From: Calvatia gigantea
Taxonomy: Eukaryota; Basidiomycota; Agaricomycetes; Agaricales; Lycoperdaceae
Assembly: GCA_025093985.1 (NCBI GenBank)
Contig: JACAAK010000008.1
Location: 1 to 64,000, forward strand
Reading direction: 5' to 3'
DNA: 64,000 bases
The notes beneath the pieces were generated by a model that did not search any database, was not told the origin of the DNA, and worked only from the letters and a program-made list of their open reading frames with translations. This document shows, piece by piece, positions 1 through 40,200 of the stretch. A program made the translations under genes and the position numbers. Each line of letters starts with the position of its first letter. The first letter of the stretch is position 1.

Positions 1-658
1 CCTCTCTCATCTAGCTCACCAACCACTACTTCAATCTTTTGGCTACTTTACTCAACAGGCTACTTATATTAGGGCTATACACTTGCCAAATTTCAGGGAA
101 ATCTGAATACCTTTTGGTTATCCTCCTTAACTGGCTTTCTTGGCCTTGAAGACTACTGGCAGTGTGGAGCAAGCAAATCAAGGTACCCAGTGGTACCCAG
201 CTTGGGTACTTTCTAAAATGATGTCCTCTACCTACTCACCAAGTTTGAAGCAATTCCATTACTATCAGGTGCAGCGCTAGCGCTGCACCCAACTAATGTA
301 GTTAGGAATTAAATAGAAGGTCGATGCTGGATTAGAATATAATGAATATATACTCGTTAAAATTCACTCAACGAGTACTATCCAACTCACTTCAGACCAT
401 AGTGATTGGCTCAATACTCATTGAATTATAGCATTATCATTAAAAATGCGGGTTTTTTACATAGCACTGCAACTACTGAGCGTATCGGCCCGTACTTTGG
501 TGCGTTGGAAACTGGATAAGAATCCGAAAAGTTCAAAAAAAAGACCAAGTCAATCGGTCCAGTTCTCGTGAGGTTATTTCATTATCATTCTAAAATTAGT
601 GATCTGGAGATATGCATGTGGATTCGTCCAAGACGAATTGATGTGTGCGCCAGTCAAA
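1..658. repeat. Direct repeat, left copy of the 7.1-kb macro-repeat unit
   Basis: These 658 bases recur at 7108-7765 with a constant offset of 7,107, and I see no differences on reading. The repeat probably begins before the window. It holds a perfect 22-bp palindrome and the first part of a satellite monomer. I see no gene in it. The arrangement suggests a 7.1-kb tandem unit rather than long terminal repeats, since no primer-binding site, polypurine tract or gag/pol lies between the copies. Confidence 0.9.
268..289. repeat. Perfect 22-bp GC-rich palindrome
   Basis: The arms GGTGCAGCGCT and AGCGCTGCACC meet without a spacer. The palindrome sits in AT-rich sequence just before the satellite begins, and an identical copy is at 7375-7396. 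It could extrude a cruciform or bind a dimeric protein; nothing in the sequence decides between these. Confidence 0.85.
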
Positions 659-7107: not shown

Positions 7108-7765
7108 CCTCTCTCATCTAGCTCACCAACCACTACTTCAATCTTTTGGCTACTTTACTCAACAGGCTACTTATATTAGGGCTATACACTTGCCAAATTT
7201 CAGGGAAATCTGAATACCTTTTGGTTATCCTCCTTAACTGGCTTTCTTGGCCTTGAAGACTACTGGCAGTGTGGAGCAAGCAAATCAAGGTACCCAGTGG
7301 TACCCAGCTTGGGTACTTTCTAAAATGATGTCCTCTACCTACTCACCAAGTTTGAAGCAATTCCATTACTATCAGGTGCAGCGCTAGCGCTGCACCCAAC
7401 TAATGTAGTTAGGAATTAAATAGAAGGTCGATGCTGGATTAGAATATAATGAATATATACTCGTTAAAATTCACTCAACGAGTACTATCCAACTCACTTC
7501 AGACCATAGTGATTGGCTCAATACTCATTGAATTATAGCATTATCATTAAAAATGCGGGTTTTTTACATAGCACTGCAACTACTGAGCGTATCGGCCCGT
7601 ACTTTGGTGCGTTGGAAACTGGATAAGAATCCGAAAAGTTCAAAAAAAAGACCAAGTCAATCGGTCCAGTTCTCGTGAGGTTATTTCATTATCATTCTAA
7701 AATTAGTGATCTGGAGATATGCATGTGGATTCGTCCAAGACGAATTGATGTGTGCGCCAGTCAAA
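7108..7765. repeat. Direct repeat, second copy of the macro-repeat start
   Basis: It matches 1-658, including the 22-bp palindrome (7375-7396) and satellite sequence from 7407. It is cut off at 7765, just after a palindrome and GTGTGCGCCAGTCAAA, where C-rich sequence and the retroelement begin. In the first copy that same sequence continues into TATTCCCAC. Confidence 0.9.
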
Positions 7766-7925
7766 CCTACTCATTCCCTGTCCATTCCCTGTCCACCCCC
7801 AGCCTGTCCCCACCTGTTCCCTACTCACCCTTGCCCACCTCTATTCATCCCAGCCCATCCCCTACCCACCCCTACTCATTCCCAGCCCATCCCCCTCCAA
7901 TATTTTTTGACCCCTATGACCCCTA
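7766..7925. repeat. C-rich minisatellite upstream of the retroelement
   Basis: Irregular repeats of CCCATTCC, CCTGTCC and CCCACC run for about 160 bases. The minus strand therefore has many runs of three to five G (TAGGGGTGGG, GATGGGCTGGG), compatible with G-quadruplex formation. It ends in a shared block, TTTTGACCCCTATGACCCCT, also found before the second element at about 15005. ORFs across it are compositional. Confidence 0.75.
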
Positions 7926-8134
7926 ATGTCCAACTCACCTAGATAACCTCCCCTAACAATGGGACTGTCCGAGCTGGACTGTTGCGTAAATAACCTGCCA
8001 CGGTATGTACCCCGCCTTCAGTTGTCAAGCTGATGACATCGTCAGGTACTTGGTACGTTCATTTTGTTGTTTTAAGAATGTTCGTATTTAAGTGCGCGGG
8101 CGCTTAATGGGCGCCCCGCATTTGGGCGCTACGC

Positions 8135-8193
8135 GGGCGCTTAAGTACAAGTTTTCCTTACTTTACATTTTCCTGACGATAACTTAAGCGCCC
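8135..8193 (+). other. GC-rich inverted repeat in the element leader
   Basis: GGGCGCTTAAG at 8135-8145 pairs perfectly with CTTAAGCGCCC at 8183-8193 across a 37-nt AT-rich loop. Further GGGCGCT and AGCGCTC blocks flank it (8101-8230) and could extend or compete with the stem. The second element keeps the same arms near 15285-15343. A structured RNA or packaging/priming role is a guess. Confidence 0.7.
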
Positions 8194-8336
8194 ATAAGCG
8201 CTGGGTTTTTGGGCGCTATTTTAGCGCTCGTTGACATTTGTCAACTGTTCCATGGATCGAGTTAATTATACTCATCCCCAAGTATAGCGCGATCCTACGC
8301 GTTCTATTGGTTTGGTAGGTACTGATGGATAATCAG

Positions 8337-8401
8337 AGCGCCTGATGAGTCTGTCATAAGACGAAACAGGTGGTTGGGGTAGCTCCCCAACCTGTTGCGC
8401 T
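8337..8401 (+). ncRNA. Hammerhead ribozyme (type I), apparently intact
   Basis: All core parts are present. CUGAUGA lies at 8342-8348. Stem II is GUCU (8349-8352) with AGAC (8359-8362) around a 6-nt loop. GAAA follows at 8363-8366. Stem III pairs ACAGGU (8366-8371) with ACCUGU (8390-8395) and continues into UGGGG/CCCCA after a bulge. The cleavage-site U is 8396, and stem I pairs GCGC 8338-8341 with GCGC 8397-8400. Predicted self-cleavage falls between 8396 and 8397. Hammerheads are known in Penelope-like elements, where they are thought to process the RNA. The core matches the consensus fully; activity is inferred. Confidence 0.92.
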
Positions 8402-8501
8402 GTCTCTCCATCGACAACTCAACGGTTTTTAGGATTTCCTCCTCCCCACTTCGCAAAACCGTCGCTCATCTCTCCGCCATCCCACTTCGACATCTACTAC
8501 G

Positions 8502-11500
8502 ATGCCCCCTCGTGCTACAGCGTCATCCTCCGGCAACTCGAATCGAGGCCGCGGCCGTGGTCGTGGTCGCGCCTCCGCTGGTTCTCGCCCCGTCGTCCCT
8601 CGCCCCTTCACCCTGCCCATCTCTCAACTCGCGAGAGGTGCGACGCGAGGCCTTCACGTTCGGGAACAAAGTCCTGCGGCTGCCCCTGCCATTGCAATAG
8701 CTCAAACGCTGGGCGCCTTGGAGACGGTCCTTGAGGGTCGGGCGAACACCCCTCAGAACCTGCAAAAGCTCCAGCAGGCACAAGCGATCGCGAGGCGCGC
8801 GCCTATAATGGGCTGCGAGAACCTCTTCGATCTGCTGGGATGTATTTTTCCGGGGGACTACAGGGGTGTCTTCAAGGAGCACCTCGAGGCTGCGATGCGC
8901 GCCCGAAAGTCTCTGGCTGCCGTTGAGCGCCAACTCAAGAGCCTGCAAAGCTCACGAGACGACGGAAAAATCCCACCTTCCCTTCAGACCAAACGAGCGC
9001 AGCCACAATTTGTGAAAACGTTCATGGTCGCGCACGCCGAGGAGGTTCGCACCTCCTTGAATGACCTTCATAAATCCTATGAGTTAGAGGCCCTTAACAA
9101 GGTCATCGAGCTCAAGGAGACTGAAGCGAATGAGCTACGCGCACTCACTCTGCTCATAGACCCCGAGGGTGGGGCTATGGAAGTAGATGACGAGGAACGC
9201 GGTGAAGGGTCTAGCACCGGGGCTGCAGCTGCGCCCGCTATGACCACCGCACACTTCACTGCGACCGGCGATCGCCTATACGCCGACCTCGTCGCTACTT
9301 TCGAACGTCTGCATAAAGAAGCTAAAGTCCTGGTGTGGGACCATAAGCATGCAGACGTACATGGGCGGCCTGTTTTGAAGGGGAGAACGGATGACCCAGC
9401 CGTGGTCGCTGCATTCCGTGACCTCCTTGACGACATCCCTGTGATCTGGAGTCGTGCGATCGGCATCGTAGAAGACGCACTTAACAAGGAAAGCAAGGTC
9501 AAAGCAGACAAACAACGGCTCCAGCGAGCAGCCATCGATGACGTCCAAGAGGCGTCCTCTTCCAAGTCCGTCGCGGAGATGGTCAAGGCGGAAGTAGCAA
9601 AGGCGCTCGAGAAAGGGAAAGGAAAGGGCAAGCAGGTACGTCGATCGTCCATCGACGTTTATGCTGATCTGTTAAGCTCTGATAATTTTTCTTCCCCTTT
9701 TCCACCAGAATCCCAAGCCAGGCAAGGGAGGAGGTCAACGCGCGAAGGACGGGGCCACTGGGGGGAGATCCTCCGGTGGTCAAGCCCAACGCGTGCGGGG
9801 GACCAAAGGTGGCAGACAGGTTCGGCAACGCAATCAGGGCAAGTCCAAGCCGAACAAGAAGGGGAAAGGCGGGAGGTCGTAATAGATGATAGCGGCATCC
9901 TAGGCATACGCGTGCATCGCGCGCCTTTCAGGTGGGACGTTTCGTCCACTTATCCCGGTTGGCTACTAACCGTTTCCCTTCGTCACGCGCAGCAATTTAT
10001 CTGGGCCCGAATTCCCTCTGTAGTTTTAGAGAGTATGCGTTATAGGTCTGGAATACATATGATTGATTGCGATGTACCGCGTGATTTAGCGATTCATTTG
10101 AGTGCGGGACTTAAGTACATGCTCCCCACTAAGTACTCTAAGCAATTGATCTTAGATGCTTGGGACGATTTCGTCGATCGTCTCCGCTGGTCAGTTCATT
10201 TCCGAATTATGGATGATCATGACAATAATGAATTACACGACGACTATGATCCAGACTATGCGACTCCGTCTAAAGCTTCACGTAAGCGGGCGAGTCCATT
10301 GGACCGAGCATTTGAGTTTGGCATCGAAGAAGGGACGCGGACGATTAATAAAGTAGTCTCGCAATTGCCCAACGATGACCAGATTGGCGGTCGCACACCT
10401 AGATCGCTTTTACCGCCGATCTCCAAACTCCATGACTATCTAGTAACTCACGAGCTCCTACTGATGGTCACTGACAAAAACTTAGGTTGCGCAGTTGCTC
10501 CGCGATCCTGGTTCATAGAAAGCGCGCTTAAGCTTCTTAACGCTATGGGTAGTCGGGATACTCCCGACTATACAAAACTTAAATTTGACCCGAAAACGTT
10601 CCATCCTGATCCTAATCATATGGACCATACTACTGGCGAGTATGGATCGGTCCATTGGTACATATGGTCGAAGCTTTCGCACATGGAGAGAATTGCAAAA
10701 TTCTGTGCTGAACATGACGTTCACCCGCAACTTCCGGACTTCTTTAGGAGTTTCTTTTTACCGGAGGTCATGGCTACAAATTACCGTCACAAGGAAGATA
10801 CTTGGGCGGAGTATGCTGACCGACTCCCAAACTTTTATGTGATCCCTAAAATCCATAAACAACCGGTAAAAGCAAGGCCGATTATCCCTTGCCACTCTGT
10901 TATACAAGGTCCAGCCGGGAAGTATGTCTCCAAGCATCTTAAACCATTAATTGCCGAGAGTCCATTCATAATTCATGGAACAAAGGATTTGGTACTTAAG
11001 CTTGCTAAATTGTCGTTACCCCAATTTAAATTAATAAATGGGTCGCTGCATCGCTTATACTTCGTCTCAGGTGACGTCGTAGCATTCTATCCTAATATCG
11101 ATAAGGATCGCTGTCTAGAGATTGTTAATGACAGATACCTTAAATGGTTATCGATGCAAGAGGATTTAAGCGTTGAGGAATCTACCAACAGAGCTTGGTT
11201 AATGAGGGAGTGCCTCAAAGCGGCCAACGACGATCTTATATTCCAGTTCGACGGGGATTATTATAGGCAGAATCACGGATTAGCGATGGGCGTTGCATGC
11301 TCACCAGATTTAGCTAATCTTTATGGAGTACACCATGAGGAAGCCTATCGTATGGGTTCAACCGCCCGCGTAGCGTATTATGGACGCTATATCGATGATT
11401 GTTTGGCCTTAGTGTACGCTAGGTCATACGGAGAGGCCCTTGGATGGGTAAGTCCTCTCAAATTCGAGAACTGTGAAATTGAATGGGATGCGGATGATAA

Positions 11501-12254
11501 TCACGTCAACTTCCTGGATTTGACCCTCTTTTTTGAGGACGGTGAGTTTCGTCACAAACCGTACAGGAAACCGCTTAACCATTTCGAACGTTTACCATGG
11601 ATTAGCTCTCACCCGGAATATGTCAAGCGCGGCACATTCACGAGTGAACTGAGTAGGCTAGCCACTCTTTCTTCGAAGTATGATTACTACGTAGAAGCAT
11701 GTAGAGAAATTGCGGATATCTATATTGCGAGAGGCTACCCTCCTAAGTTAATTGCTTCTTGGTTAAGGAGAAACTATAAGGAACGTTGGGATAATCGGCT
11801 TAGAGAGAGTCGACCTGAACCAGCGGACGTCCTTGTCCTTAAATCAGAATATAACTTGTCATGGGATTTATTTAACGTTCAAACGTTGGCAGACAGCCTG
11901 AAGTCTGGATGGATAGTTGCATTACGCACATTATCCTTCGGTAATACCCCGGAGAAATCAGAACTCTCCGCGGAAATACTCGCAACCAAGCCGGAACTTA
12001 CTGAAACTCGTCGGGGAGGGCGATTGCATTGGGGTGGTGAAGATCCGCTTTGGCGGGTTGACGCTCACTCTAGTGTAGTTGCTAAATCTCTGGTGGGCAG
12101 AGGTGAGTATCTACGCTTGGATAAACTTGGACTTCTTGATCGGCGGTTGATCGTCAGTAAGCGACGAACGAAACAACTTATAGATCTCGCTGCTTCTTGG
12201 CGGCGGGCTGTCTTAGAAAGACGTGATCTAGGTAGTTTTCCAGATCTCAACTAG
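8502..12254 (+). CDS. Penelope-like ORF: basic N-terminal region plus reverse transcriptase
   Basis: The reading frame is open for 1,250 codons from ATG 8502, with an Arg/Gly-rich start. The RT region begins with DKNLGCAVAPRSWF and the PKIHK...ARPII block typical of Penelope-like RTs. It continues with motif A (SGDVVAFYPNID, Asp at about 858), motif B (NHGLAMGVACSPDLANL, about 924-940) and motif C (YIDD, Asp 965 and 966). The later FLDLTLFFEDG and YRKPLNHFERL blocks are also typical of the family. About 200 residues follow the RT without a GIY-YIG endonuclease. The protein would copy the element RNA into DNA, priming perhaps from exposed chromosome ends. A likely intron donor at 9636 means the mature protein may lack residues translated from about 9636-9992. 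All catalytic Asp residues are present. Confidence 0.9.
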   Translation: MPPRATASSSGNSNRGRGRGRGRASAGSRPVVPRPFTLPISQLARGATRGLHVREQSPAAAPAIAIAQTLGALETVLEGRANTPQNLQKLQQAQAIARRAPIMGCENLFDLLGCIFPGDYRGVFKEHLEAAMRARKSLAAVERQLKSLQSSRDDGKIPPSLQTKRAQPQFVKTFMVAHAEEVRTSLNDLHKSYELEALNKVIELKETEANELRALTLLIDPEGGAMEVDDEERGEGSSTGAAAAPAMTTAHFTATGDRLYADLVATFERLHKEAKVLVWDHKHADVHGRPVLKGRTDDPAVVAAFRDLLDDIPVIWSRAIGIVEDALNKESKVKADKQRLQRAAIDDVQEASSSKSVAEMVKAEVAKALEKGKGKGKQVRRSSIDVYADLLSSDNFSSPFPPESQARQGRRSTREGRGHWGEILRWSSPTRAGDQRWQTGSATQSGQVQAEQEGERREVVIDDSGILGIRVHRAPFRWDVSSTYPGWLLTVSLRHAQQFIWARIPSVVLESMRYRSGIHMIDCDVPRDLAIHLSAGLKYMLPTKYSKQLILDAWDDFVDRLRWSVHFRIMDDHDNNELHDDYDPDYATPSKASRKRASPLDRAFEFGIEEGTRTINKVVSQLPNDDQIGGRTPRSLLPPISKLHDYLVTHELLLMVTDKNLGCAVAPRSWFIESALKLLNAMGSRDTPDYTKLKFDPKTFHPDPNHMDHTTGEYGSVHWYIWSKLSHMERIAKFCAEHDVHPQLPDFFRSFFLPEVMATNYRHKEDTWAEYADRLPNFYVIPKIHKQPVKARPIIPCHSVIQGPAGKYVSKHLKPLIAESPFIIHGTKDLVLKLAKLSLPQFKLINGSLHRLYFVSGDVVAFYPNIDKDRCLEIVNDRYLKWLSMQEDLSVEESTNRAWLMRECLKAANDDLIFQFDGDYYRQNHGLAMGVACSPDLANLYGVHHEEAYRMGSTARVAYYGRYIDDCLALVYARSYGEALGWVSPLKFENCEIEWDADDNHVNFLDLTLFFEDGEFRHKPYRKPLNHFERLPWISSHPEYVKRGTFTSELSRLATLSSKYDYYVEACREIADIYIARGYPPKLIASWLRRNYKERWDNRLRESRPEPADVLVLKSEYNLSWDLFNVQTLADSLKSGWIVALRTLSFGNTPEKSELSAEILATKPELTETRRGGRLHWGGEDPLWRVDAHSSVVAKSLVGRGEYLRLDKLGLLDRRLIVSKRRTKQLIDLAASWRRAVLERRDLGSFPDLN
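9636..9992 (+). other. Alternative intron in the element ORF (acceptors at 9708 and 9992)
   Basis: The donor GTACGT at 9636 lies on a codon boundary. Acceptor 1 (9708) follows a pyrimidine-rich CTTCCCCTTTTCCACCAG and removes 73 nt. The new frame reads a strongly basic Gly/Lys/Arg tail (NPKPGKGGGQRAK...) to a TAA at 9880-9882, a protein of about 435 residues. Acceptor 2 (9992) follows a consensus branch site TACTAAC and CGCGCAG. It removes 357 nt and stays in frame with the RT (KQ joined to QFIWARIP). Unspliced RNA also stays open. The splice-site quality is seen directly; use in vivo is inferred. Confidence 0.6.
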
Positions 12255-12941
12255 AGATCAACGTACTGACTTTCGTCAGACTACCTTGGATGGTTGGTTA
12301 GCTGAAGCTTGAGCTTCACTAGTACCTCTTGTCCGCGGGCGTTCTTTTAGACGCCTGGCGAAAACTTCTTCTGAATTCTCGGTCGAAACGAAATCCCAGT
12401 TACGATTCTGGGTGACTTCGGTCTAATCAAAAATCTCCCGACCCGACGGGGCCTTCTGGCTCCAACTCCTTTGATACCTGGCATGCCTTCGAGTATGCGA
12501 TGCGAGTAGTGATCCACTACGCAGTGTGCGTTACGTCAAGCATGTCAGGTTGGACTCATCTTAGGTAAAGTGCGCTTTCTATGGGCGCGTGAGCGGGATA
12601 GATACGTTGGGCAACCTATATTGACGTTCACACAACCAATATGAAGGGAGTCTAGACCTAATGCTTAACCTGGTGTGGCAGGTAATAGGCAGGATGAAGG
12701 AATGAAGCCAGTAGTCAGTGTCGTTTGAGAGTTCGTACTGTGGCTTGACGAACGTGTTCTTGAGTGAACGCTTTTACCAGTAGTTATACGCCGGGGAGGT
12801 GATGGCCCCGGTTGGGATAGCGAACGACCAACAACATCGCATTGGATCACCAACGTTTTCCTTGCAGGTGTGCCGATATGGAACACTTTGCGGTAAGTAC
12901 ATCCGTGTACGCAATCTTGGACTACTACTAATACGTAGGAA
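12255..12941 (+). other. 3' untranslated region of the element, with an intron-like segment
   Basis: No coding ORF is supported. GTAAGT at 12893 and a TACTACTAATACGTAG end at 12938 define a 46-nt intron-like segment, and TTTTCCTTGCAG ending at 12867 is a good upstream acceptor. Introns past the stop suggest that transcripts run on towards the telomere-like repeats and the next leader. Confidence 0.5.
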
Positions 12942-12967
12942 CCCCCTAACCCCTAACCTCCCCTAAC
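12942..12967. repeat. Telomere-like repeats, C-strand orientation
   Basis: CCCCCTAACCCCTAACC then TCCCCTAAC gives about three units related to the fungal telomere repeat CCCTAA. Shorter traces stand at the same point before the other two leader copies (CCTCCCCTAAC at 7948-7957, CCCCCTAAC at 15047-15055). The orientation would place a chromosome end to the left of the window. Confidence 0.75.
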
Positions 12968-13174
12968 AATGGTGAGTGGAACCGGCCTTGTCTCGTGATG
13001 CGCAGGCTGATAGATGGACTAAGGGACTGTCCGAGCTGGACTGTTGCGTAAATAACCTGCCACGGTATGTACCCCGCCCTCAGTTGTCAAGCTGATGACA
13101 TCGTTAGGTACTTGGTACGTTCATTTTATTATTTCAAGAATGTTCGTATTTAAGTGCGTGGGCGCTTAATGGGC
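12968..13174 (+). repeat. Partial second leader of the element (unspliced form)
   Basis: It matches 7958-8112 apart from a few substitutions, but carries the extra 52-nt GTGAGT...CTAAG segment at 12972-13023. It stops at GGGCGCTTAATGGGCG, before the hairpin and ribozyme, and runs straight into satellite sequence (ATTCCCACACTCAATC). Confidence 0.85.
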
Positions 13175-14707
13175 GAAACATTCCCACACTCAATCACTCA
13201 GTGTCGTAGTTGTAAGGCTCATACAGGTGGCCACTGCTTCCCAATCACAATGTATTATACCTCATTGGAATCGCCTCAATGAGCTCTTTCTAATGGTACC
13301 AAGACCGTAGAAATCCGCCTTCTCCCTGCAATAATATTCCAGCATTCCTCTAATAAAAACATGGCCTCACAGTATACCATATATAATCCTTGGTCCCCAG
13401 TATCTAACTAAAAGCCACCTGTTAATATCACATGTCTACAAAAGAGACTGAGCTATTATCTCTGTCCACTGTATTGTTATATAATTATGTGTCTATTTGG
13501 AGCAGAATACTGTGAATACAGTAGAAATACAGCACCTCATCAGAATATGATGTATTTAGGCTCGTTGGAATCCCCTCAATGAGTACTATCCAATGGAATT
13601 TAGACTGAAATGATTGCTTTGGTGTACAGTGAGTTATAGCAATATCATTAGAAATATGTGTTTTTAGAATGGTGCCCCAGTAAATGAGCGTATCAGCCCA
13701 TATCTGGGGTTTATAGAAAGCCGCTGCAAATCTGAACAAGTTAAAAAAAAGACTGAGTGGATCTGCTCACTTTTGGTGGAGTTATTCTATTATCATTCTA
13801 TATTCCATGTTCTGGAGACTCATGCACACAGATTCGTCCAAGACGAATTGATGTGTGCACCACTCTAATCTTCCCACAGTCCAGTGGGGTCTGATGCACA
13901 TCCATTCGTCCAAGACGAATGGTCTGCACTATCCCAATTTTTCCCACACTCAATCAGTCAATGTCAACAATTGCTGAGCCAGTACTGGTAGCCCCTGCAA
14001 TCCAATCACCATGTATTATACCTCGTTAGAACCGCCTCAAAAAGCTCTTTCCAACGGTATTAAGACCGTAGAAATCCGCCTACTCTCTGCCATAATACTT
14101 CAGCATTTCTCTAATAACAATGTGGCTCCACAGCACTCCAGGTAATTATTGAAGCACTATCCCCAGTATCTCATCAGGGGCTTCCTGTAAATGTCAGTAA
14201 TCTACAAAAGGGACCGAGTAATTATCTGCAGCCTTTGTATTGTTATAGAATTATCTGTCTATTTTGGGGTAAATACTATGAATACAGTAGAAATCCAGAG
14301 ACTCAATGAAATATAATGTATCTGGGCTTGTTGGAATCAGCTCAATGAGTACTATTCCACGGTATTTAGACCGAAATTATTGCTTTAGTATGCAGTGAGT
14401 TATACCAATAACACCATAAATGCGAGTTTTTAAAATAGCACTGCAATGAAAGACCATATTGGCCCATATCTGGGGTCGCTGAAAAGCCACTGTCAATCCG
14501 AACAAAATAAAAAAAAGTATGAGTAGATTCGCTGATTTTTGGTGGAGTTATTTCAGTATCATTCTATATTTAATACTCTGAGGACTCATGCACACTAATT
14601 TGTCTTGGACGAATTTGGGTGTGCACCACTCTGATTTTCCCACAGTTAGCTGAGGTATGATGCACATGCATTCATCTTGGACAAATGGTGTGCACAACTC
14701 CAATATC
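13175..14707. repeat. Satellite array, about two monomers
   Basis: Two monomers of about 765 bp show the same landmarks as 300-2400 (GTTGGAATC..CTCAATGAG at about 13562 and 14329). Palindromes are centred near 13840, 13913, 14603 and 14677. It ends at CTCCAATATCA, where a C-rich minisatellite and the second element begin. No genes. Confidence 0.85.
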
Positions 14708-15003
14708 ACCCCCAGTCCATTGCCTACCCATCCCCAGTCTATTCTCTACCCATTCCTCCTCATCCCTGTCCTCATCCCCTCCTTATTCTTACTCATCCCC
14801 TATGACCCTGCCCACCTCCAGCCTGTCCCCAGCTGTCCCCTCCCATTCCCCTGTCCATTCCCTGTCCATTTCCTGCCCATTCCCTGCCCACCCCCAGCCT
14901 GTCCCCAGCTGTCCCCAGCCCATTCCCAGCCCATTCCTGCCACCCATCCATCCTGCCATCCCTGCCCACCCCTACTCATCCCCTGCCTATCCCCTTCCAA
15001 TAA
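14706..15003. repeat. C-rich minisatellite before the second element
   Basis: Units such as CCCATTCC, CCTGTCC, CCCAGCCTGTCCCCAG and CTCATCCC repeat for about 300 bases. It is the counterpart of 7766-7925 but longer and differently arranged, as expected of an unstable minisatellite. ORFs across it on both strands are compositional. Confidence 0.75.
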
Positions 15004-15044
15004 TTTTTGACCCCTATGACCCCTAATGTCCAACTCACCTAGAT

Positions 15045-15598
15045 AACCCCCTAACAATGGTGAGTGGAACCGGCCTTGTCTCGTGATGCGCAGGCTGATA
15101 GATGGACTAAGGGACTGTCCGAGCTGGACTGTTGTGTAAATAACCTGCCACGGTATGTACCCCGCCTTCAGTTGTCAAGCTGATGACATCGTTAGGTACT
15201 TGATACGTTCATTTTATTATTTCAAGAATGTTCGCATTTAAGTGCGTGGGCGCTTAATGGGCGCCCCGCATTTGGGCGCTACGCGGGCGCTTAAGTACAA
15301 GTTTTCCTTACTTTACATTTTCCTGACGATAACTTAAGCGCCCATAAGCGCTGGGTTTTTGGGCGCTATTTTAGCGCTCGTTGACATTTGTCAACTGTTC
15401 CATGGATCGAGTTAATTATACTCATCCCCAAGTATAGCGTGATCGTACGCGTTTCATTGGTTTGGTAGGTACTGATGGATAATCAGAGCGCCTGATGAGT
15501 CTGTCATAAGACAAAACAGGTGGTTGGGGTAGCTCCCCAACCTGTTGCGCTGTCTCTCCATCGACAACTCAACGGTTTTTAGGATTTCCTCCTCCCCA
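15045..15598 (+). mobile_element. 5' fragment of a second Penelope-like element
   Basis: It begins with CCCCCTAACAATG and follows the leader of the first element as far as CTCCTCCCCAC, then breaks about 50 bases before the ORF start. It keeps the 52-nt intron (15060-15111), the hairpin and the hammerhead region. The sequence after the break belongs to a different locus. Confidence 0.85.
15487..15551 (+). ncRNA. Hammerhead ribozyme copy with G12 changed to A, probably inactive
   Basis: It aligns with 8337-8401 at an offset of 7,150. CUGAUGA, stem II, stem III and the cleavage site are kept. The conserved GAAA reads AAAA because base 15513 is A instead of G. G12 acts as the general base in hammerhead cleavage, so this copy should cleave very poorly. 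Confidence 0.88.
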
Positions 15599-15730
15599 CC
15601 CCCAATTGACGTGTTCGGGTCTCCTTTGTCTGGTGGGGTATCTGCCGTAGTAGGGGATAGAGTGAATGCGAAGAGGGCATTGATTGCACACGCAAATGTG
15701 GGAGGGATGCTAGAGAAAAGGTGTGTCTGA
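15599..15730 (+). pseudogene. Short coding-like tail of an unknown gene
   Basis: Directly after the broken element the frame reads PPIDVFGSPLSGG...VGDRVNAKRALIAHANVGGMLEKR before GTGTGT. This looks like the end of a protein exon whose upstream part is missing. From 15674 on the sequence is repeated at 22011, where it is joined to a different gene. The family is not recognised. Confidence 0.3.
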
Positions 15731-17590: not shown

Positions 17591-18676
17591 ATGGCTCGTC
17601 TCTTTCTTGCTCTACTCTCTGCTACCGTTGGTATTGCCAACGTCGGTGCTCATGGCTACCTAGCCTCTTTGACGACGAACGCCGCCACCTATCCCGGCTG
17701 GGCCCCTTTCACCGATCCGTGAGCGTATACGGCGAGGAAGATGTAGATATGGCGAGCTAATTATGCGCTAGATACCTCAACCCTGTTCCAGTCCGCGTTG
17801 AGAGAATAATACTCGACAATGGTCCCGTCACTGATGTTGCTTCCCGTGTAAGGATCGACTTTGTTGAATCACGTCGGTGTGCACCTGATCGGCTACTACA
17901 GGACCTCACCTGCAACAAGGGCGGCAATGTCCCAACGACAATGTTCGCTGACGTGACCGCCGGAACCAAGGTCAAGTGTGAGTTGAATCTTATATCACAC
18001 CTTATGGTGGGACGTAACAAGGCACGGAAAAGTCCAGTGGGATCAGTGGGGCAGCTCACACTCTGGACCAGTGATGACTTACATGGCCAAGTGCACGAAC
18101 GGCTGTTCCAACTTCAAGGGAGATACCGGAAGCCCCTGGTTTAAGATTGACCACTCTGGCTACGACCCCAAACTCTCTCCTCCCTGGGCATCAGTGAGTC
18201 CCAGAATACCAGTACGAAGATTGAGTGCTGGACAACCACATCGTTTTCAGGATCGCTTGGCTGCGCAAGGTGCTAGCTGGATGGTTACAATTCCAAAGAG
18301 CATCGCTAACGGCGAATATCTTTTGATAAGTGGAATTCCCACACAGTCGGGGTTGATTGGTTGATGGTGTGATCGGGTGTGCACAGGCATGAAATCTTGG
18401 GCTTGCACGTCGCCAGCACTGTTGGCGGTGCCCAATTCTACCCACATTGCGTGCAAGTGCGTGTTACTGGGGGCGGGTCTGCGACCCCGTCGGGCGTGGC
18501 GTTGCCGGGCGTGTACAAGCCTACAGAACCGTGAGCGCGAGCTGTCACTGGCCGGGTTTGCCTGGCTGATCTTTGTCCACGTATGCAGAGGCATTCTGAC
18601 GCAATTGTGGTGGTACAACCCCTCCAACACGTCTGCGACGTATACTATTCCTGGTGGACCTACCTGGCAAGGATAA
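17591..18676 (+). CDS. AA9 (former GH61) lytic polysaccharide monooxygenase
   Basis: This is a secreted copper enzyme of the family that oxidatively cleaves cellulose and related glucans. A 20-residue signal peptide (MARLFLALLSATVGIANVGA) is followed by HGYLASL, whose His becomes residue 1 of the copper histidine brace. Exons read at 17591-17718, 17772-17847, 17902-17977, 18033-18193 and from about 18251. They give VKFQWDQWGSSHSGPVMTYM (second brace His in SSHSGP), then QFYPHC with the axial Tyr, and YTIPGGPTW near the end. Introns are about 53-57 nt with good GT-AG sites. The junction before HEILGLH is odd: the phase needs a donor where the sequence reads TTTTGATAAGTGG rather than a clean GTAAGT. 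There is no CBM1 tail. The family call is firm; intactness is less sure. Confidence 0.88.
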
Positions 18677-19380
18677 AGAAATGAAGGTAGAAGGTACTGT
18701 AGTTTGATGATAAGCGGAATCAGTTTTCTATGGCTGCCCAGATATTGGCGTGGTGTCGGTAGAGATGTAACTATTGGACCTGTCCAAGCGCCATCGATGG
18801 CACTGAGAGAAAACATTGGGTTGATTATGCGTGACAAATTTTGAGACACCGTATCTATGTGACCTGAACGGGGGATACGACGGAGGTGGGACAAGGGGGT
18901 GAACACCTGGACGATAAAGTCGTAAGGTTGGAGTCACCCTGGCTCCAGCAAACACTTGAGAACTCTATCAAAAGTTAAGAAATACGAATAGATTGGGAAG
19001 AAAGGGCTCCGTGAAGCCGGGAGTGAGACTGGAGAGAGGATAAAATTGAATTGTTGGTGTTTGTTCTTTTTCTCGGATGATTACACAAGAACTCAACTTT
19101 CTCAGCGGCCACCACCACCGCCCTGCCTTACTCAACGGCTCTCTCGCTACACACTCCCCGGTTCTTCCCCCGATATCCCAAAGCTCCAGGTTTTATTACT
19201 CTTGCTTTCCATCGTCCCGGCCGGTGAGTTTTGACCAACCGCTCGCCTTTCGGCTTCACCCCGGCTTTGACCCGTCGTTGCGCTTCATCTCATTCTTCGC
19301 CTCATTAACCTTTTCACTATCCTTTCTTTCCAACCCCCTCGTCCCATCTGGAAGGAATCATTCGTGTTTGACGGTTCCAG

Positions 19381-22010: not shown

Positions 22011-25000
22011 AGGGCATTGATTGCACACGCAAATGTGGGAGGGATGCTAGAGAAAAGGTGTGTCTGAAAGGGGAACGAGTAATGCTGCATAGATCGTCCT
22101 ACCTAGTCCGTGTCCGTTGATAATAGAAACGCAACACGTAACACAATAACTCACTCTTGCGGGGCAGCCCAGTGCTTGAACCACGCAACGAGGCGGAGGA
22201 TCAGGCCATGCACGGATGTTATATCTGCCATAACCCTTCAATTGTGACCTTAGACATGGCCTCCAATTTCTTGAGGATGTTTCTGGAACGGCTAGCAACG
22301 TTGTCGGCTGTCGTGGTGAGTGTCAAGGACGCATGAGATGCAATGCACGTGATTTAGACTTATCAACGCCATTCGATCCAAATCATCAGTCTCGCCCAAA
22401 ATTTTGCCTCACAATTGTATATAAATATGGACGTTGAAATGTCAGTTAGCTAATGAGTCGGAAGGAATATACTATCTCATTACAGTTATTACCATGCCAC
22501 CTAAGCGACCGGAATTATCGGGCATTCTCCCCAGGCCACCCCCTTTTATGCGAATGCAAGCACGCATGCAACCTTCGATGCCCAGTGCTGGAAACTTGGA
22601 TGAATGCCTAACACCTCGCACAATAATGCTAGGAACCGGAACTCTGAATCGTCGTGTCAGGAGGCGTAACCAACCCCACTCCCACTCCATACTTCACACC
22701 AGTAGGCAGCAGCCAGCCAGCCAGAGTTGAACCAATTTTGGGGAGACGGCAGGTTTACGAGCATTGGATTTCGCAGTGTTCGCAGTGCCAGTGGCCAGAG
22801 CATTGGTAACATTAGTTGAGGAGTGGAGATGAGCGATGAGTGGGTAGGAAGTTCTTGTGCACAGGCCGACAAACTGCGGTCCTATGGTTTGGATCACGCA
22901 TTGCATTCGGGACACGCTGCAGAATACAAGCAGGAGCGCTCGGGGCGGGAGGGTGCGCTGTTCTCCAGGGTGGTGGTGACCATAGGAAGAGTTGAAGATT
23001 TCAGGAGCTCAAATTCGGCTCGCACACTGGCAAGCCAAGATATGACTTCGCGCCAATGAAAAACATTTGCTGTGCACCTTTGGGATTAACTAAAGGAGGA
23101 CATTACGACGGCACATAAATCGCACCTAGAACTGAAGGCATATGCAACAATCGTCGTTTGATCACTGACCGAACTCATGCAGGAAACGCTAAAGCTAGAG
23201 CCCTCCGAGTTCTTCGCAACAGTGAAACTGGGATCCGAGAGCGAGAGTAAGTTTCTCAGCAAGGGGATGAAGACCCAACGCACCGCAGTTGAGGCTGGTT
23301 GGACCCAGCAGAGTCGTTAGAGACTGTCAATCAAGTTCTTTTTCAGATAACGTACAAAGAAAGGGGTGTTTTTATCAATATCCATTGACAGTGGCATCTT
23401 CCACTGTGGGACGTTACGAAAATTAAATAGAAGGCGACCAGGCAAGACCCAAGATATGGTAACATATGAGAATCACTTCCTCAAACGGAGTTAAGGACCT
23501 CACTAGAGCTAACGTCTTTTTCGCCGACACTGGCGCTCGTCCGCGACGAGACCGGACTGTGCTCGGAAAAAATGCCAGAGGACGTTCTTTACGGACGTGT
23601 CAAAGTTAACGTACCACGTGATAGCAGCGCTGGGCGTAACGAAGTTGGATCCATGATCATGGATGCCAGGGAAGAGGGTGCGGGCCGGTACCCTTCACCA
23701 AGAGGAGGAAATGATGAAGCCCGATGACCCGATTTCAAGAAGTCCATTTCGTAGTCCACCTCAGCTTATCTCGTAGAATCTCACATGATAGTGTGTTTTA
23801 GCGACAAGGAAGCGACCTCACAAATGCTTGGGTTATTCAGCGGTGAAAGCAGAGGGCTTGGCTCGGATCATGCACAAATGTATATGAGGCCCACCTCCAC
23901 GAAGGCGGTCGACTAGAACGGGTTGACATGGCTCGTCTCTTTCTTGCTCTACTCTCTGCTACCGTTGGTATTGCCAACGTCGGTGCTCATGGCTACCTAG
24001 CCTCTTTGACGACGAACGCCGCCACCTATCCCGGCTGGGCCCCTTTCACCGATCCGTGAGCGTATACGGCGAGGAAGATGTAGATATGGCGAGCTAATTA
24101 TGCGCTAGATACCTCAACCCTGTTCCAGTCCGCGTTGAGAGAATAATACTCGACAATGGTCCCGTCACTGATGTTGCTTCCCGTGTAAGGATCGACTTTG
24201 TTGAATCACGTCGGTGTGCACCTGATCGGCTACTACAGGACCTCACCTGCAACAAGGGCGGCAATGTCCCAACGACAATGTTCGCTGACGTGACCGCCGG
24301 AACCAAGGTCAAGTGTGAGTTGAATCTTATATCACACCTTATGGTGGGACGTAACAAGGCACGGAAAAGTCCAGTGGGATCAGTGGGGCAGCTCACACTC
24401 TGGACCAGTGATGACTTACATGGCCAAGTGCACGAACGGCTGTTCCAACTTCAAGGGAGATACCGGAAGCCCCTGGTTTAAGATTGACCACTCTGGCTAC
24501 GACCCCAAACTCTCTCCTCCCTGGGCATCAGTGAGTCCCAGAATACCAGTACGAAGATTGAGTGCTGGACAACCACATCGTTTTCAGGATCGCTTGGCTG
24601 CGCAAGGTGCTAGCTGGATGGTTACAATTCCAAAGAGCATCGCTAACGGCGAATATCTTTTGATAAGTGGAATTCCCACACAGTCGGGGTTGATTGGTTG
24701 ATGGTGTGATCGGGTGTGCACAGGCATGAAATCTTGGGCTTGCACGTCGCCAGCACTGTTGGCGGTGCCCAATTCTACCCACATTGCGTGCAAGTGCGTG
24801 TTACTGGGGGCGGGTCTGCGACCCCGTCGGGCGTGGCGTTGCCGGGCGTGTACAAGCCTACAGAACCGTGAGCGCGAGCTGTCACTGGCCGGGTTTGCCT
24901 GGCTGATCTTTGTCCACGTATGCAGAGGCATTCTGACGCAATTGTGGTGGTACAACCCCTCCAACACGTCTGCGACGTATACTATTCCTGGTGGACCTAC

Positions 25001-26010
25001 CTGGCAAGGATAAAGAAATGAAGGTAGAAGGTACTGTAGTTTGATGATAAGCGGAATCAGTTTTCTATGGCTGCCCAGATATTGGCGTGGTGTCGGTAGA
25101 GATGTAACTATTGGACCTGTCCAAGCGCCATCGATGGCACTGAGAGAAAACATTGGGTTGATTATGCGTGACAAATTTTGAGACACCGTATCTATGTGAC
25201 CTGAACGGGGGATACGACGGAGGTGGGACAAGGGGGTGAACACCTGGACGATAAAGTCGTAAGGTTGGAGTCACCCTGGCTCCAGCAAACACTTGAGAAC
25301 TCTATCAAAAGTTAAGAAATACGAATAGATTGGGAAGAAAGGGCTCCGTGAAGCCGGGAGTGAGACTGGAGAGAGGATAAAATTGAATTGTTGGTGTTTG
25401 TTCTTTTTCTCGGATGATTACACAAGAACTCAACTTTCTCAGCGGCCACCACCACCGCCCTGCCTTACTCAACGGCTCTCTCGCTACACACTCCCCGGTT
25501 CTTCCCCCGATATCCCAAAGCTCCAGGTTTTATTACTCTTGCTTTCCATCGTCCCGGCCGGTGAGTTTTGACCAACCGCTCGCCTTTCGGCTTCACCCCG
25601 GCTTTGACCCGTCGTTGCGCTTCATCTCATTCTTCGCCTCATTAACCTTTTCACTATCCTTTCTTTCCAACCCCCTCGTCCCATCTGGAAGGAATCATTC
25701 GTGTTTGACGGTTCCAGATGCCACGGCCAAACAAGGTGACGTCGTCCCGGTCTACGCCGCGCCCTTCCACACGCTCGCAGCAGCTATCACCACCAATAAA
25801 CAAACCCAGCCTACTCGTTACCCTCAAGAACCCATCAACAACCGCCTCCAGCAGTAAGGGAGAAGTCAGCGACAACGACAATGACAGTGTCTGCTCGTCA
25901 TCAAAATCTTCCGATGTCGTCCTTGCACGATCCTCCGCGACAAAGGTTAAAGCGAAAGATGATACTGGTGTCGTCAAGGCACCATGGCGTCACCCAGACG
26001 AACTCGATTA
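22011..26010. repeat. Direct repeat A, copy 2
   Basis: It matches 15674-19673. The left join cuts into the Ser/Pro-rich gene after MSDQK. The right join, inside codons for DELDY, skips about 2.3 kb of that gene and lands in its coiled-coil part out of frame. Confidence 0.9.
23928..25013 (+). CDS. AA9 lytic polysaccharide monooxygenase, second copy
   Basis: This appears identical to 17591-18676, including the odd splice junction, so the two cannot be told apart by sequence. The identical flanks of 1-2 kb on each side mean it is either a very recent duplicate or an assembly repeat. Confidence 0.8.
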
Positions 26011-28020: not shown

Positions 28021-31000
28021 ACCTGTGCCACTGTAGCACACCTTACCATCCCACAACCACCAACACGCACACGATACAACTCGTGGGAGCATATGTAGGG
28101 TGGCACAACACAGGTATAATTACCATGCATATGATTTCATAGCGGGCTCACAGCGGAGGTTGCCACGAACCAGTGTGGCATTATCATGATTCCTATACCA
28201 ATACTTTTCGGTGAACGAACAAGTTCACAGTCATTCTGCGAACGCATCGGCTGCCTAAAATTTAAGACTACTCCTGTGACAAACAAATTGATAGACATTT
28301 AACGGCAGTTTTCAGTTGATTAGGCCACCCGGAAAAAAATCGCTGATTGGTGCCAAAAGAAAGGCAGTAGCGGCACTCCCAAACCATTCCGCACAAACGG
28401 GACTCAATTCTTCTGTGTCCCTAAGATGAAATAAAGTAGATAATACACTATAAGTTTGAAGTCCGACGCGAATGAAACAATGTATCCACTAATGAACTCA
28501 GTGCTTCTGGTTGCGATTCATCGGTCCGTCCCCTCGAAGCATGGCAGACACAAACCCACGCAATTTCTGTAAATATTTTAGTAACGGTGCGATCCCAGCG
28601 CCCTCTTTCAGAGTCAGGGTGTCCCAAGTAGTCCCCCCTGGAAGATGTTTGTGTCAAATGTGCTGGTGTAGCCCCTTTAGACAAAGATCGTCTAGAAGAA
28701 TAAAAATAAAATGTGAGTTAAGAAGAGGCGCCGCCGCTCCGATATCAACGCAAGGTCGGCCAAGAAACAATCGGGGAATATCAGCGGTTTCCGGGTTTGG
28801 GTAACTTGGGGGTGACCCTTAAAGGACCTATTGCTGGAAGCGGTTTTGACGGTTTGACTGCCGAAGAAAGGAATCGTGGGAACATAAAACAAACAATGTC
28901 AAGCAAGATATACCTGCAACAGTGAATACTCCGATGCTTGTCCCAACTCCAGAGCCGACTCTGGAATCCATGGAGATCAATTGGGATAATATTAATATCG
29001 CTTGACATGCATTGGGAATGGTCATGTGGTGTGGTACTCTACCCATGTGTTTGTGAGGATGTGGTGTACACTGATGGAAGGTGTGGGGAATTCGCATGCA
29101 CACATAATGTCATGAATGGTTCCTCCGTTTCGTTCGCCCCGGCTAGGTGCGGTTCACTTCCCTGCGTTTATCTCTTTTTTTTTGGTCACTCCTTCACTTC
29201 ACGTTCCTCATGTCCCTCCCAGTCATTCCCAGCGCTTCCGTTAACAGCGCTGGCGCAACTTCTTCAACATCAGATCCTCGCACGGACGCCTCGTTGGCAG
29301 CAGATGGAGATGACGATGAGCTTCCCACACCAACCACCTCAGAGATCGCACCTGTCGACGGCACAATTCCGTCTTGGAAGCCCATCTACAACGTCCACTC
29401 GCCTCCGGATGTGAAGCGACCGTATAAGCCTGAGGAAGCTCTGGAGGATATACCGGGTGTAAGCTATGCGTTGGAAATCTTCTTGTCGTCTCACATGTTG
29501 GAGTCGGAAGAATATTGTCATAAGATGGACGAACCGAAGTACGTAGCTGTTGTGTATGAGCACTTCAAGCTCTAACTTTTCCTCCAGGGAACGTTTATAT
29601 TTCGCCACCGGCTACGGTCTCATACAATGCGTGAAAGCTCTCATGTCGTACGAAGACGATGTATGTATTCTCTTTTCCTATCTTCCTTCCTTAAACGGAC
29701 GGTCTACTCCAGGACCTTCTGGCGGGTATCAACCACACGAAACATGGCAACTATATCGCTAGCCAGCATCGCAAGAAGCAGGCTTTCCTTGGTTCTCGTC
29801 TGGCCGGATACGTTGTTTCTCATCTCAGCTCTGGTGTCAGTCATATCAGATCGATGACTCCCGTGGAGCGACATGCGGAGCTTGTCTACGCTGAGAGCCT
29901 TTTCGAGAAGGTGAGCATTCTCTTAACCCATGCTCTCCCGACCTCAGATCATCTGTCAAACGTCAGGCGTTACTTGGAATCGTTTACTCGGGTGATTGGC
30001 TCGCCTTCATCAAAGAAGCGTAAGAGATACATTTCTGCGCAGCGCATACCTACTCAACCCCATACAGACTAAACATGCGCACGACAATTGGAGTTTATCG
30101 ACAATTGGGCCAATTCCTTGATTCTGTTGACGCTGAGGCATCCGCGCGCGGTGAAGGACCCATCGACAAGACAATCGATCCCCACTTCCGTTCGGGTGTG
30201 TATCTGGGCGTTGGGATGAGCCACATCATCCTAAGCTTAATGCCTGGGAAGCTAATGACACTGGTTGAGTTGTTTGGATACCATGGAGACCGTAAGGCCG
30301 GTTTAGAAGCGCTCATGAAGGCTGGTGGGTGGACTGATGAAGAGGAAGAACCGGAGATATCTGCCAGTATGTGAACGGAATTTCCCTTGATATCAGTATT
30401 ACCAACACAATCTAGGGCAAGAGGGCGTCCGACGAACCATTTGCGACATGGCTCTACTCATATTCCACCTCATTCTGTCAAGCTTTACCTTTGATGGTGT
30501 TAATATCATTATTGCTGATAAAATTCTCAAATGGAACCTGAAGCGATACCCGAACGGTGCGTAGCCTTTGTTGCCCGTTTAGCTCATATTAACTTGACAC
30601 AGGTGTTTTCTTTTTGTTTGGCGCTGGACGCCTCGCCCTGTGTCAATCGCAGCCTGCCAAAGCCGTCTACTACTATACCAAGGCTATGGAATCACAAAAA
30701 CAATACCGGAATCTACACCACATATCCTTCTGGGAGATGGCTATCGCCAACCTAGCATTATGGGATATACCCACTAGCCTGAAATGCTGGACGACCCTAA
30801 GGGCTGAAGCCACCGTACGTAAAGCCCAATAAACTCGAGCCGGCTGCTGATGCTGTAAATACCTCAGTGGTCCAAAGCTATCTACACCTATGGAATGTCT
30901 GTCTGTCTGCTGGAAAATGGGGACGACACCCAGAAGAGAGAAGCGGCTAAGCTCTTGGAGAAAGTTCCCGAGTTACGGCAAAGGATTGCAGGGAAGTCGA

Positions 31001-37241: not shown

Positions 37242-40200
37242 ACCTGTGCCACTGTAGCACACCTTACCATCCCACAACCACCAACACGCACACGATACAA
37301 CTCGTGGGAGCATATGTAGGGTGGCCAACACAGGTATAATTACCATGCATATGATTTCATAGCGGGCTCACAGCGGAGGTTGCCACGAACCAGTGTGGCA
37401 TTATCATGATTCCTATACCAATACTTTTCGGTGAACGAACAAGTTCACAGTCATTCTGCGAACGCATCGGCTGCCTAAAATTTAAGACTACTCCTGTGAC
37501 AAACAAATTGATAGACATTTAACGGCAGTTTTCAGTTGATTAGGCCACCCGGAAAAAAATCGCTGATTGGTGCCAAAAGAAAGGCAGTAGCGGCACTCCC
37601 AAACCATTCCGCACAAACGGGACTCAATTCTTCTGTGTCCCTAAGATGAAATAAAGTAGATAATACACTATAAGTTTGAAGTCCGACGCGAATGAAACAA
37701 TGTATCCACTAATGAACTCAGTGCTTCTGGTTGCGATTCATCGGTCCGTCCCCTCGAAGCATGGCAGACACAAACCCACGCAATTTCTGTAAATATTTTT
37801 AGTAACGGTGCGATCCCAGCGCCCTCTTTCAGAGTCAGGGTGTCCCAAGTAGTCCCCCCTGGAAGATGTTTGTGTCAAATGTGCTGGTGTAGCCCCTTTA
37901 GACAAAGATCGTCTAGAAGAATAAAAATAAAATGTGAGTTAAGAAGAGGCGCCGCCGCTCCGATATCAACGCAAGGTCGGCCAAGAAACAATCGGGGAAT
38001 ATCAGCGGTTTCCGGGTTTGGGTAACTTGGGGGTGACCCTTAAAGGACCTATTGCTGGAAGCGGTTTTGACGGTTTGACTGCCGAAGAAAGGAATCGTGG
38101 GAACATAAAACAAACAATGTCAAGCAAGATATACCTGCAACAGTGAATACTCCGATGCTTGTCCCAACTCCAGAGCCGACTCTGGAATCCATGGAGATCA
38201 ATTGGGATAATATTAATATCGCTTGACATGCATTGGGAATGGTCATGTGGTGTGGTACTCTACCCATGTGTTTGTGAGGATGTGGTGTACACTGATGGAA
38301 GGTGTGGGGAATTCGCATGCACACATAATGTCATGAATGGTTCCTCCGTTTCGTTCGCCCCGGCTAGGTGCGGTTCACTTCCCTGCGTTTATCTCTTTTT
38401 TTTTGGTCACTCCTTCACTTCACGTTCCTCATGTCCCTCCCAGTCATTCCCAGCGCTTCCGTTAACAGCGCTGGCGCAACTTCTTCAACATCAGATCCTC
38501 GCACGGACGCCTCGTTGGCAGCAGATGGAGATGACGATGAGCTTCCCACACCAACCACCTCAGAGATCGCACCTGTCGACGGCACAATTCCGTCTTGGAA
38601 GCCCATCTACAACGTCCACTCGCCTCCGGATGTGAAGCGACCGTATAAGCCTGAGGAAGCTCTGGAGGATATACCGGGTGTAAGCTATGCGTTGGAAATC
38701 TTCTTGTCGTCTCACATGTTGGAGTCGGAAGAATATTGTCATAAGATGGACGAACCGAAGTACGTAGCTGTTGTGTATGAGCACTTCAAGCTCTAACTTT
38801 TCCTCCAGGGAACGTTTATATTTCGCCACCGGCTACGGTCTCATACAATGCGTGAAAGCTCTCATGTCGTACGAAGACGATGTATGTATTCTCTTTTCCT
38901 ATCTTCCTTCCTTAAACGGACGGTCTACTCCAGGACCTTCTGGCGGGTATCAACCACACGAAACATGGCAACTATATCGCTAGCCAGCATCGCAAGAAGC
39001 AGGCTTTCCTTGGTTCTCGTCTGGCCGGATACGTTGTTTCTCATCTCAGCTCTAGGGGTCAGTCATATCAGATCGATGACTCCCGTGGAGCGACATGCGG
39101 AGCTTGTCTACGCTGAGAGCCTTTTCGAGAAGGTGAGCATTCTCTTAACCCATGCTCTCCCGACCTCAGATCATCTGTCAAACGTCAGGCGTTACTTGGA
39201 ATCGTTTACTCGGGTGATTGGCTCGCCTTCATCAAAGAAGCGTAAGAGATACATTTCTGCGCAGCGCATACCTACTCAACCCCATACAGACTAAACATGC
39301 GCACGACAATTGGAGTTTATCGACAATTGGGCCAATTCCTTGATTCTGTTGACGCTGAGGCATCCGCGCGCGGTGAAGGACCCATCGACAAGACAATCGA
39401 TCCCCACTTCCGTTCGGGTGTGTATCTGGGCGTTGGGATGAGCCACATCATCCTAAGCTTAATGCCTGGGAAGCTAATGACACTGGTTGAGTTGTTTGGA
39501 TACCATGGAGACCGTAAGGCCGGTTTAGAAGCGCTCATGAAGGCTGGTGGGTGGACTGATGAAGAGGAAGAACCGGAGATATCTGCCAGTATGTGAACGG
39601 AATTTCCCTTGATATCAGTATTACCAACACAATCTAGGGCAAGAGGGCGTCCGACGAACCATTTGCGACATGGCTCTACTCATATTCCACCTCATTCTGT
39701 CAAGCTTTACCTTTGATGGTGTTAATATCATTATTGCTGATAAAATTCTCAAATGGAACCTGAAGCGATACCCGAACGGTGCGTAGCCTTTGTTGCCCGT
39801 TTAGCTCATATTAACTTGACACAGGTGTTTTCTTTTTGTTTGGCGCTGGACGCCTCGCCCTGTGTCAATCGCAGCCTGCCAAAGCCGTCTACTACTATAC
39901 CAAGGCTATGGAATCACAAAAACAATACCGGAATCTACACCACATATCCTTCTGGGAGATGGCTATCGCCAACCTAGCATTATGGGATATACCCACTAGC
40001 CTGAAATGCTGGACGACCCTAAGGGCTGAAGCCACCGTACGTAAAGCCCAATAAACTCGAGCCGGCTGCTGATGCTGTAAATACCTCAGTGGTCCAAAGC
40101 TATCTACACCTATGGAATGTCTGTCTGTCTGCTGGAAAATGGGGACGACACCCAGAAGAGAGAAGCGGCTAAGCTCTTGGAGAAAGTTCCCGAGTTACGG

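What the first reader, a model, noticed from the sequence alone, without database searches (positions are those of the whole stretch)
7959..13023. Retroelement copy with a precisely removed 52-nt intron
Three copies of the element leader can be compared. Two (12972-13023 and 15060-15111) carry a 52-nt segment starting GTGAGT and ending CTAAG between AATG and GGACTG. The long, apparently complete element has AATGGGACTG at that place, exactly the spliced product. This is direct evidence that the copy passed through a spliced RNA. Penelope-like elements are better known for keeping introns, so a spliced/unspliced pair side by side is informative about their replication.
Basis: partly seen in the sequence, partly recalled or inferred. 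Interest (0 to 1): 0.85.

Follow-up and report, generated by a model that had tools for sequence, protein, structure and literature searches.

The report
Telomere retroelement copied from spliced RNA
A jumping element that lives at a mushroom's chromosome ends carries a tiny intron near its start, and several complete copies have lost exactly that intron, which suggests they were copied from spliced sense RNA.

Summary
The 52-nt GTGAGT...CTAAG segment lies at 12972-13023 and 15060-15111; the element at 7.96 kb has AATG|GGACTG instead. A genome census classified 45 leader copies: 32 keep the segment whole, 9 are truncated inside it, 3 lack it with the same exact borders, 1 is truncated beyond it. 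The three losses do not form a clade; grouping all three, or any pair, is rejected. In the best case (contig C56) the spliced 5' repeat and its own unspliced 3' repeat show 0 substitutions in 463 aligned sites. The losses occur only at free 5' leaders of elements with a complete open frame. The copy at the internal junction is never spliced (0 of 21), and an intron-like segment in the frame is kept in 9 of 9 aligned copies. The element is an endonuclease-lacking Penelope-like element with a telomerase-like reverse transcriptase, 5' end outward in 45 of 45 copies. Best reading: insertions were made from sense RNA spliced only at its 5' leader. That bears on a question left open in print, whether these elements copy antisense or unspliced sense RNA. 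No RNA data were available.

The parts
7947..7961 (+). end of leader exon (CCTCCCCTAACAATG) of the spliced element, telomere-like
7962..8449 (+). 5' pseudo-LTR (pLTR1), starting directly at exon 2: the 52-nt segment is absent
8336..8402 (+). hammerhead-ribozyme-like motif in pLTR1
   Evidence: Rfam RF00008 21 bits, below its gathering score of 48.5
8502..9635 (+). ORF1, first part, ends in a Lys/Gly-rich stretch
9636..9708 (+). 73-nt intron-like segment (GTACGT...CCACCAG); retention keeps ORF1 in frame with the RT, removal would end ORF1 at 9880
   Evidence: present in 9 of 9 aligned copies
9709..9882 (+). ORF1 tail in the spliced frame (TAA at 9880-9882), overlapping the RT frame
10035..12254 (+). 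reverse transcriptase, telomerase-like fold, no GIY-YIG endonuclease found
12255..12892 (+). 3' untranslated region
12893..12938 (+). candidate intron A (GTAAGT...TACTAATACGTAG); present in all 21 junction copies
12939..12971 (+). junction J: fixed telomere-like tract GAACCCCCTAACCCCTAACCTCCCCTAACAATG
12972..13023 (+). 52-nt leader intron, unspliced, at J
13024..13175 (+). 3' pseudo-LTR (pLTR2), truncated
15060..15111 (+). 52-nt leader intron in a repeat-only copy
15112..15599 (+). repeat-only (pLTR) copy without reading frame

Best explanation
The 52-nt segment is a spliceosomal intron in the 5' leader of an endonuclease-lacking, telomere-attaching Penelope-like element. Sense transcripts are spliced at this leader intron. 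The element's reverse transcriptase, probably primed by the G-rich telomere end on the C-rich tract at the pLTR-ORF border, copies the RNA from its downstream repeat through the junction J and the reading frame to the spliced 5' leader, and so adds a new unit whose 5' repeat lacks the intron while its 3' repeat keeps it. Shown: exact, repeated absence at the same borders, found only at free 5' leaders of elements with complete reading frames. Inferred: that the remover is the spliceosome, where priming happens, and why J and the ORF segment stay unspliced (perhaps cis-preference of the reverse transcriptase for the RNA that encodes it, or decay of RNAs spliced after the stop codon).
For: Three sites with identical borders. 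The tree of 38 repeats needs 3 changes; holding all three spliced copies together is rejected (p-AU 1.1e-28), and each pair too (9.2e-5, 1.3e-3, 2.1e-3). C56: 0 substitutions in 463 aligned sites and one 7-nt gap between spliced 5' and unspliced 3' repeat; C77: 2 of 299 and one gap. GTGAGT start, AG end, CTGAT branch-like site whose A lies 13 nt before the end (consensus recalled). Position: spliced in 3 of 4 readable leaders of complete elements, 0 of 10 other free whole copies, 0 of 21 at J (Fisher 3/4 v 0/31, p 0.0006, grouping chosen after seeing the data; free v J 3/14 v 0/21, p 0.056). The 9 copies truncated inside the segment, all unspliced, and the one truncated beyond it are left out of these tests. 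The three spliced elements have open frames of 1273-1293 codons. The segment does not fold end to end, z +0.99. 45 of 45 copies point 5' outward, 41 of 45 within 25 kb of a contig end.
Against: No RNA reads. The acceptor ends AAG, weaker than CAG or TAG (recalled). Repeats at chromosome ends recombine, and the tree is weakly resolved (5 of 36 inner branches starred, 16 open), so independence is less sure than the p-values suggest; by plain distance the nearest copy to both C74 and C77 over 470 nt is C56:2302 (10 of 467, 7 of 469), not their tree neighbours. In this window's element the outer 60 nt of flank are shared with three other copies (57 of 60, 59 of 60, 56 of 57), two of which keep the whole intron. 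One complete element (C45:3024903) keeps the intron; only 9 nt precede its leader before the contig ends, so it may be a junction copy. Why the identical intron at J is never removed (0 of 21) is unexplained.
Confidence: 0.84

Rival explanations
1. DNA deletion through the short G-G microhomology at the two borders.
For: Two to three G residues at each border allow it; microhomology deletions of Penelope copies are reported in a rotifer (PMC3846280, Discussion read).
Against: The same exact deletion would be needed more than once, each time in a free 5' leader of a complete element and never at 21 junction copies with nearly the same sequence; 8 of 4125 possible leader deletions have GT-AG ends.
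Confidence: 0.06
2. One loss by splicing, then spread to other elements by gene conversion or end-to-end recombination.
For: Subtelomeric repeats are shared between ends; the repeat tree is weakly resolved.
Against: C77's spliced copy has the T/T variant (GGATTGTCTGAGC) at positions 4 and 9 after the junction, the other two do not, so a tract would have to end within 3 nt; C56's repeat matches its own 3' repeat without substitutions in 463 sites. It would still need one spliced RNA.
Confidence: 0.07
3. The reverse transcriptase skipped the segment on unspliced RNA.
For: Template jumps are proposed for these elements (PMC3846280, Discussion read).
Against: No predicted fold brings the borders together; identical borders in three copies; never at J.
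Confidence: 0.03

Closest known systems
Endonuclease-deficient Penelope-like elements (Athena of rotifers, Coprina of fungi; the name Coprina is recalled, the 2007 paper is not held)
   Same: Telomerase-like RT, no endonuclease found, chromosome-end location, telomeric repeats at the 5' end, head-to-tail arrays
   Different: Fixed telomere-like junction J, a leader intron, and three copies that have lost it exactly; whether other members show this could not be checked
Terminons of Adineta vaga (passages of PMC6431247)
   Same: Hammerhead motif followed by a C-rich telomere-like tract at the 3' attachment end
   Different: About 5 kb and one fused reading frame here; giant elements there
Poseidon of Anolis (PMC11167929, main text read)
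   Same: pLTR-ORF-pLTR units; insertions here end at the pLTR-ORF border, compatible with internal initiation of reverse transcription
   Different: Poseidon has a GIY-YIG endonuclease and AT-rich targets
Plant Ty1/Copia EVD (passages of PMC8892269)
   Same: Would work alike: unspliced RNA gives the ORF1-RT fusion, spliced RNA gives ORF1 alone
   Different: Unrelated element; here inferred from sequence only

Membership tests
Endonuclease-deficient Penelope-like elements | Reverse transcriptase related to telomerase | tested here: met
Endonuclease-deficient Penelope-like elements | No GIY-YIG endonuclease domain | tested here: met
   No such Pfam match at E 1 in ORF1, RT or the fused frame
Endonuclease-deficient Penelope-like elements | Located at chromosome ends, 5' end outward, telomeric repeats attached | tested here: met
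   45 of 45 point outward, 41 of 45 within 25 kb; the C7 and C26 end copies abut TTAGGGG-type repeats
Penelope-like elements | Pseudo-LTRs in tandem or partial tandem | tested here: met
Penelope-like elements | Hammerhead ribozyme motif in the pLTR | tested here: inconclusive
   Strict core plus stem III in 26 of 45 copies (one stem III pair C-G in 17, T-A in 7); 4 other copies have CAAAAC for CGAAAC; Rfam below gathering; cleavage untested
Penelope-like elements | RT groups with named Penelope/Coprina elements in a tree | not tested
   No named reference sequences were at hand
Spliceosomal intron | GT-AG borders and branch-like site, exact removal in copies | tested here: met
   branch consensus recalled
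Spliceosomal intron | Spliced RNA in cells | not testable with these tools
   No RNA reads available

The most novel reading that the evidence does not exclude
The genomic RNA of this telomeric element is partly spliced by design. Only the cap-proximal leader intron is removed, while the introns in the reading frame and at the junction are kept, so the same RNA encodes the ORF1-RT fusion and serves as template. Every new complete unit then carries a spliced 5' repeat and an unspliced 3' repeat, which marks the RNA's 5' end in the genome and shows that a sense transcript was copied. Repeat-only copies come from the unspliced junction, whose telomere-like tract acts as a seed for chromosome-end healing.
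Probability: 0.42. Interest if true: 0.75.

Novelty: new variant of a known kind. Interest (0 to 1): 0.62.

Why it matters
Penelope-like elements are unusual in keeping introns. A 2013 paper (PMC3846280, Discussion read) argued that antisense templates would explain this, could not exclude unspliced sense ones, and said further experiments were needed to decide. Exact, repeated loss of a sense-strand intron argues that sense RNA was copied in at least these insertions, and the position rule (5' leader yes, junction no) gives a concrete, testable picture of the template.

Full report
Observation. The window is the left end of contig C74 of a 46-Mb genome in 77 contigs, probably of a basidiomycete fungus: the 8 of 120 listed protein relatives that carry an organism name come from Agaricus (3), Leucoagaricus (2), Armillaria (2) and Lentinula (1).

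Census. Searches of the whole genome with the leader as DNA (41 matches; 40 of 50 candidates scored), with the unspliced start (32 sites, control 2), the spliced start (3 sites, control 0) and the exon-2 start (43 sites, control 0) were merged and 45 copies classified: 21 with the intron directly after the body's 3' end (junction J), 11 with the intron at other (free) positions, 9 free and truncated inside it, 3 free without it, 1 free and truncated in exon 2. One of the 11 (C45:3024903) has only 9 nt before its leader where the contig ends and may be a junction copy.

Independence. The three spliced copies are C56:2823, C74:7962 and C77:3409746 (position of exon 2). In a tree of the repeats downstream of the junction each sits beside a copy that keeps the intron: C56 with its own 3' repeat (support 99/94), C74 with the copy at 15112 (98/81), C77 with a C26 copy (92/91). 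Three changes are needed, and common descent of the three or of any pair is rejected. The tree is weakly resolved overall (5 of 36 inner branches starred, 16 open), and by plain distance over 470 nt the nearest copy to both C74 and C77 is C56:2302 (10 of 467, 7 of 469). C56 has 0 substitutions in 463 sites and one 7-nt gap to its own 3' repeat (next nearest 9 of 463); a 497-column alignment adds one mismatch at the very end of the repeat. C77 has 2 of 299 to its own truncated 3' repeat; C74 has 6 of 150. All these nearest copies keep the intron. Recombination among chromosome ends weakens any tree of such repeats, so I claim at least two and probably three separate losses.

Position rule. Annotating the fetched stretches with pieces of the window's element shows five elements with 5' repeat and complete frame: C74, C56 (two), C77, C45. 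Three have a spliced leader, one (C56:8375) starts in exon 2, one (C45) is the ambiguous unspliced case. All five have an open frame of 1273-1301 codons. The other 10 free unspliced copies lack a complete reading frame in the stretch held (nine repeat-only, one deletion derivative). So splicing is seen at 5' leaders of complete elements (3 of 4 readable), not at J (0 of 21) nor in the other free whole copies (0 of 10). Fisher p is 0.0006 for 3/4 against 0/31, and 0.056 for free (3/14) against J (0/21); the first grouping was made after seeing the data. The 9 copies truncated inside the segment are unspliced and were not counted.

The segment as an intron. GTGAGT start, CTGAT branch-like site whose A lies 13 nt before the end, 52 nt long. 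It is identical in 27 of 32 copies (0.0036 changes per site), and J with candidate intron A in 17 of 21 (0.0022), while the pLTR varies more, roughly 0.02 to 0.17 per site in 40-column blocks; alignment beyond the repeat inflates the last blocks. Its ends do not pair.

The element. ORF1 and the reverse transcriptase are one open frame. The RT has 1311 relatives at E 0.001 among 7993 scored candidates. Pfam at E 1 finds only two weak, sub-cutoff matches in ORF1 and none in the RT; no endonuclease. Four relatives that were scanned show RVT_1 below its cutoff, and NCBIfam gives sub-cutoff reverse-transcriptase matches. The predicted RT structure is closest to telomerase. All 45 copies have their 5' end toward the nearest contig end. 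In eight copies the letters before a free leader are the tail of a preceding repeat ending in a C-rich tract of the CCTCCTCC kind and then CCCTAA-type letters, as expected if a telomeric G-rich end primes on that tract (inference). The pLTR holds a hammerhead-like motif.

A second intron-like segment. At 9636-9708 GTACGT...CCACCAG interrupts the Lys/Gly-rich end of ORF1. If removed, ORF1 ends at TAA 9880-9882; if kept, the frame runs into the RT. Nine of nine aligned copies keep the segment and are open in the RT frame across 9600-9899. In 9709-9880 the 18 variable sites fall 2, 5, 11 by codon position in the spliced frame and 11, 2, 5 in the RT frame (binomial p 0.014 for third positions), so selection seems to follow the spliced ORF1 frame. 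The segment itself is no more variable than ORF1 upstream (12 of 73 against 190 of 1134 sites, the latter in 7 copies). Relatives P0001, P0002 and P0004 have at the same place an unconserved bridge beginning V-R or V-S that reads like a translated intron; P0009 does not. In a crude scan 15 of 76 long relatives had a V-R/V-S motif after a basic stretch, some of them elsewhere in the protein, so the wider spread is unproven. Plant Ty1/Copia EVD uses the same logic (passages read).

Mechanism and limits. Together, the template RNA of the three spliced insertions was spliced at its leader but not in the frame or at J. Likely reasons: the RNA that encodes the RT must keep the frame segment, and RNAs spliced after the stop codon may be destroyed; both are guesses. 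Repeat-only copies may be eroded elements healed at J's telomere-like tract or short cDNAs; the data do not decide. The window's own copy shares its outer flank with three other copies that start at different element positions, so ends are being re-joined, and this copy alone would not carry the argument.

What is known. Intron retention and the sense/antisense question are set out in PMC3846280 (passages and Discussion), which also says that fungi have only endonuclease-deficient members. Internal initiation is shown for Poseidon (PMC11167929, main text). Terminon ends are described in PMC6431247 (passages), minimal hammerheads in PMC7761336 (passages), Penelope elements at Agaricus chromosome ends in PMC7473861 (passages). 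The primary papers on intron-bearing and fungal telomeric elements are not held; the name Coprina is recalled.

Noticed in passing
window 9636-9708: Intron-like segment whose retention fuses ORF1 to the RT and whose removal would end ORF1; kept in 9 of 9 aligned copies, with variable sites downstream following the spliced frame.
   Followed up: partly
window 12893-12938: Second strong intron candidate (GTAAGT...TACTAATACGTAG) just upstream of the junction, with a TTTTCCTTGCAG acceptor-like stretch further upstream; no copy spliced there was found. Could mean transcription starts in the 3' region of an upstream element.
   Followed up: partly
window 8336-8402: Hammerhead-like motif with a full stem III in 26 of 45 copies, one pair of which is T-A in 7 and C-G in 17, unlike the minimal motifs described for Penelope elements (PMC7761336 passages).
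   Followed up: partly
window 7860-7951, 14960-15051; C34:19.8 kb; C67:9.0 kb: The same subtelomeric sequence ending TAGATAACC is joined to element leaders at different start points, as if it were itself added to chromosome ends.
   Followed up: partly
window 1-658 and 7108-7765: A 658-base subtelomeric stretch repeated with 100% identity.
   Followed up: no
window 18247-38635: Several long reading frames recur with identical translations (18247-18933 and 24584-25270; 28926-29414 and 38147-38635), so large recent duplications lie here.
   Followed up: no
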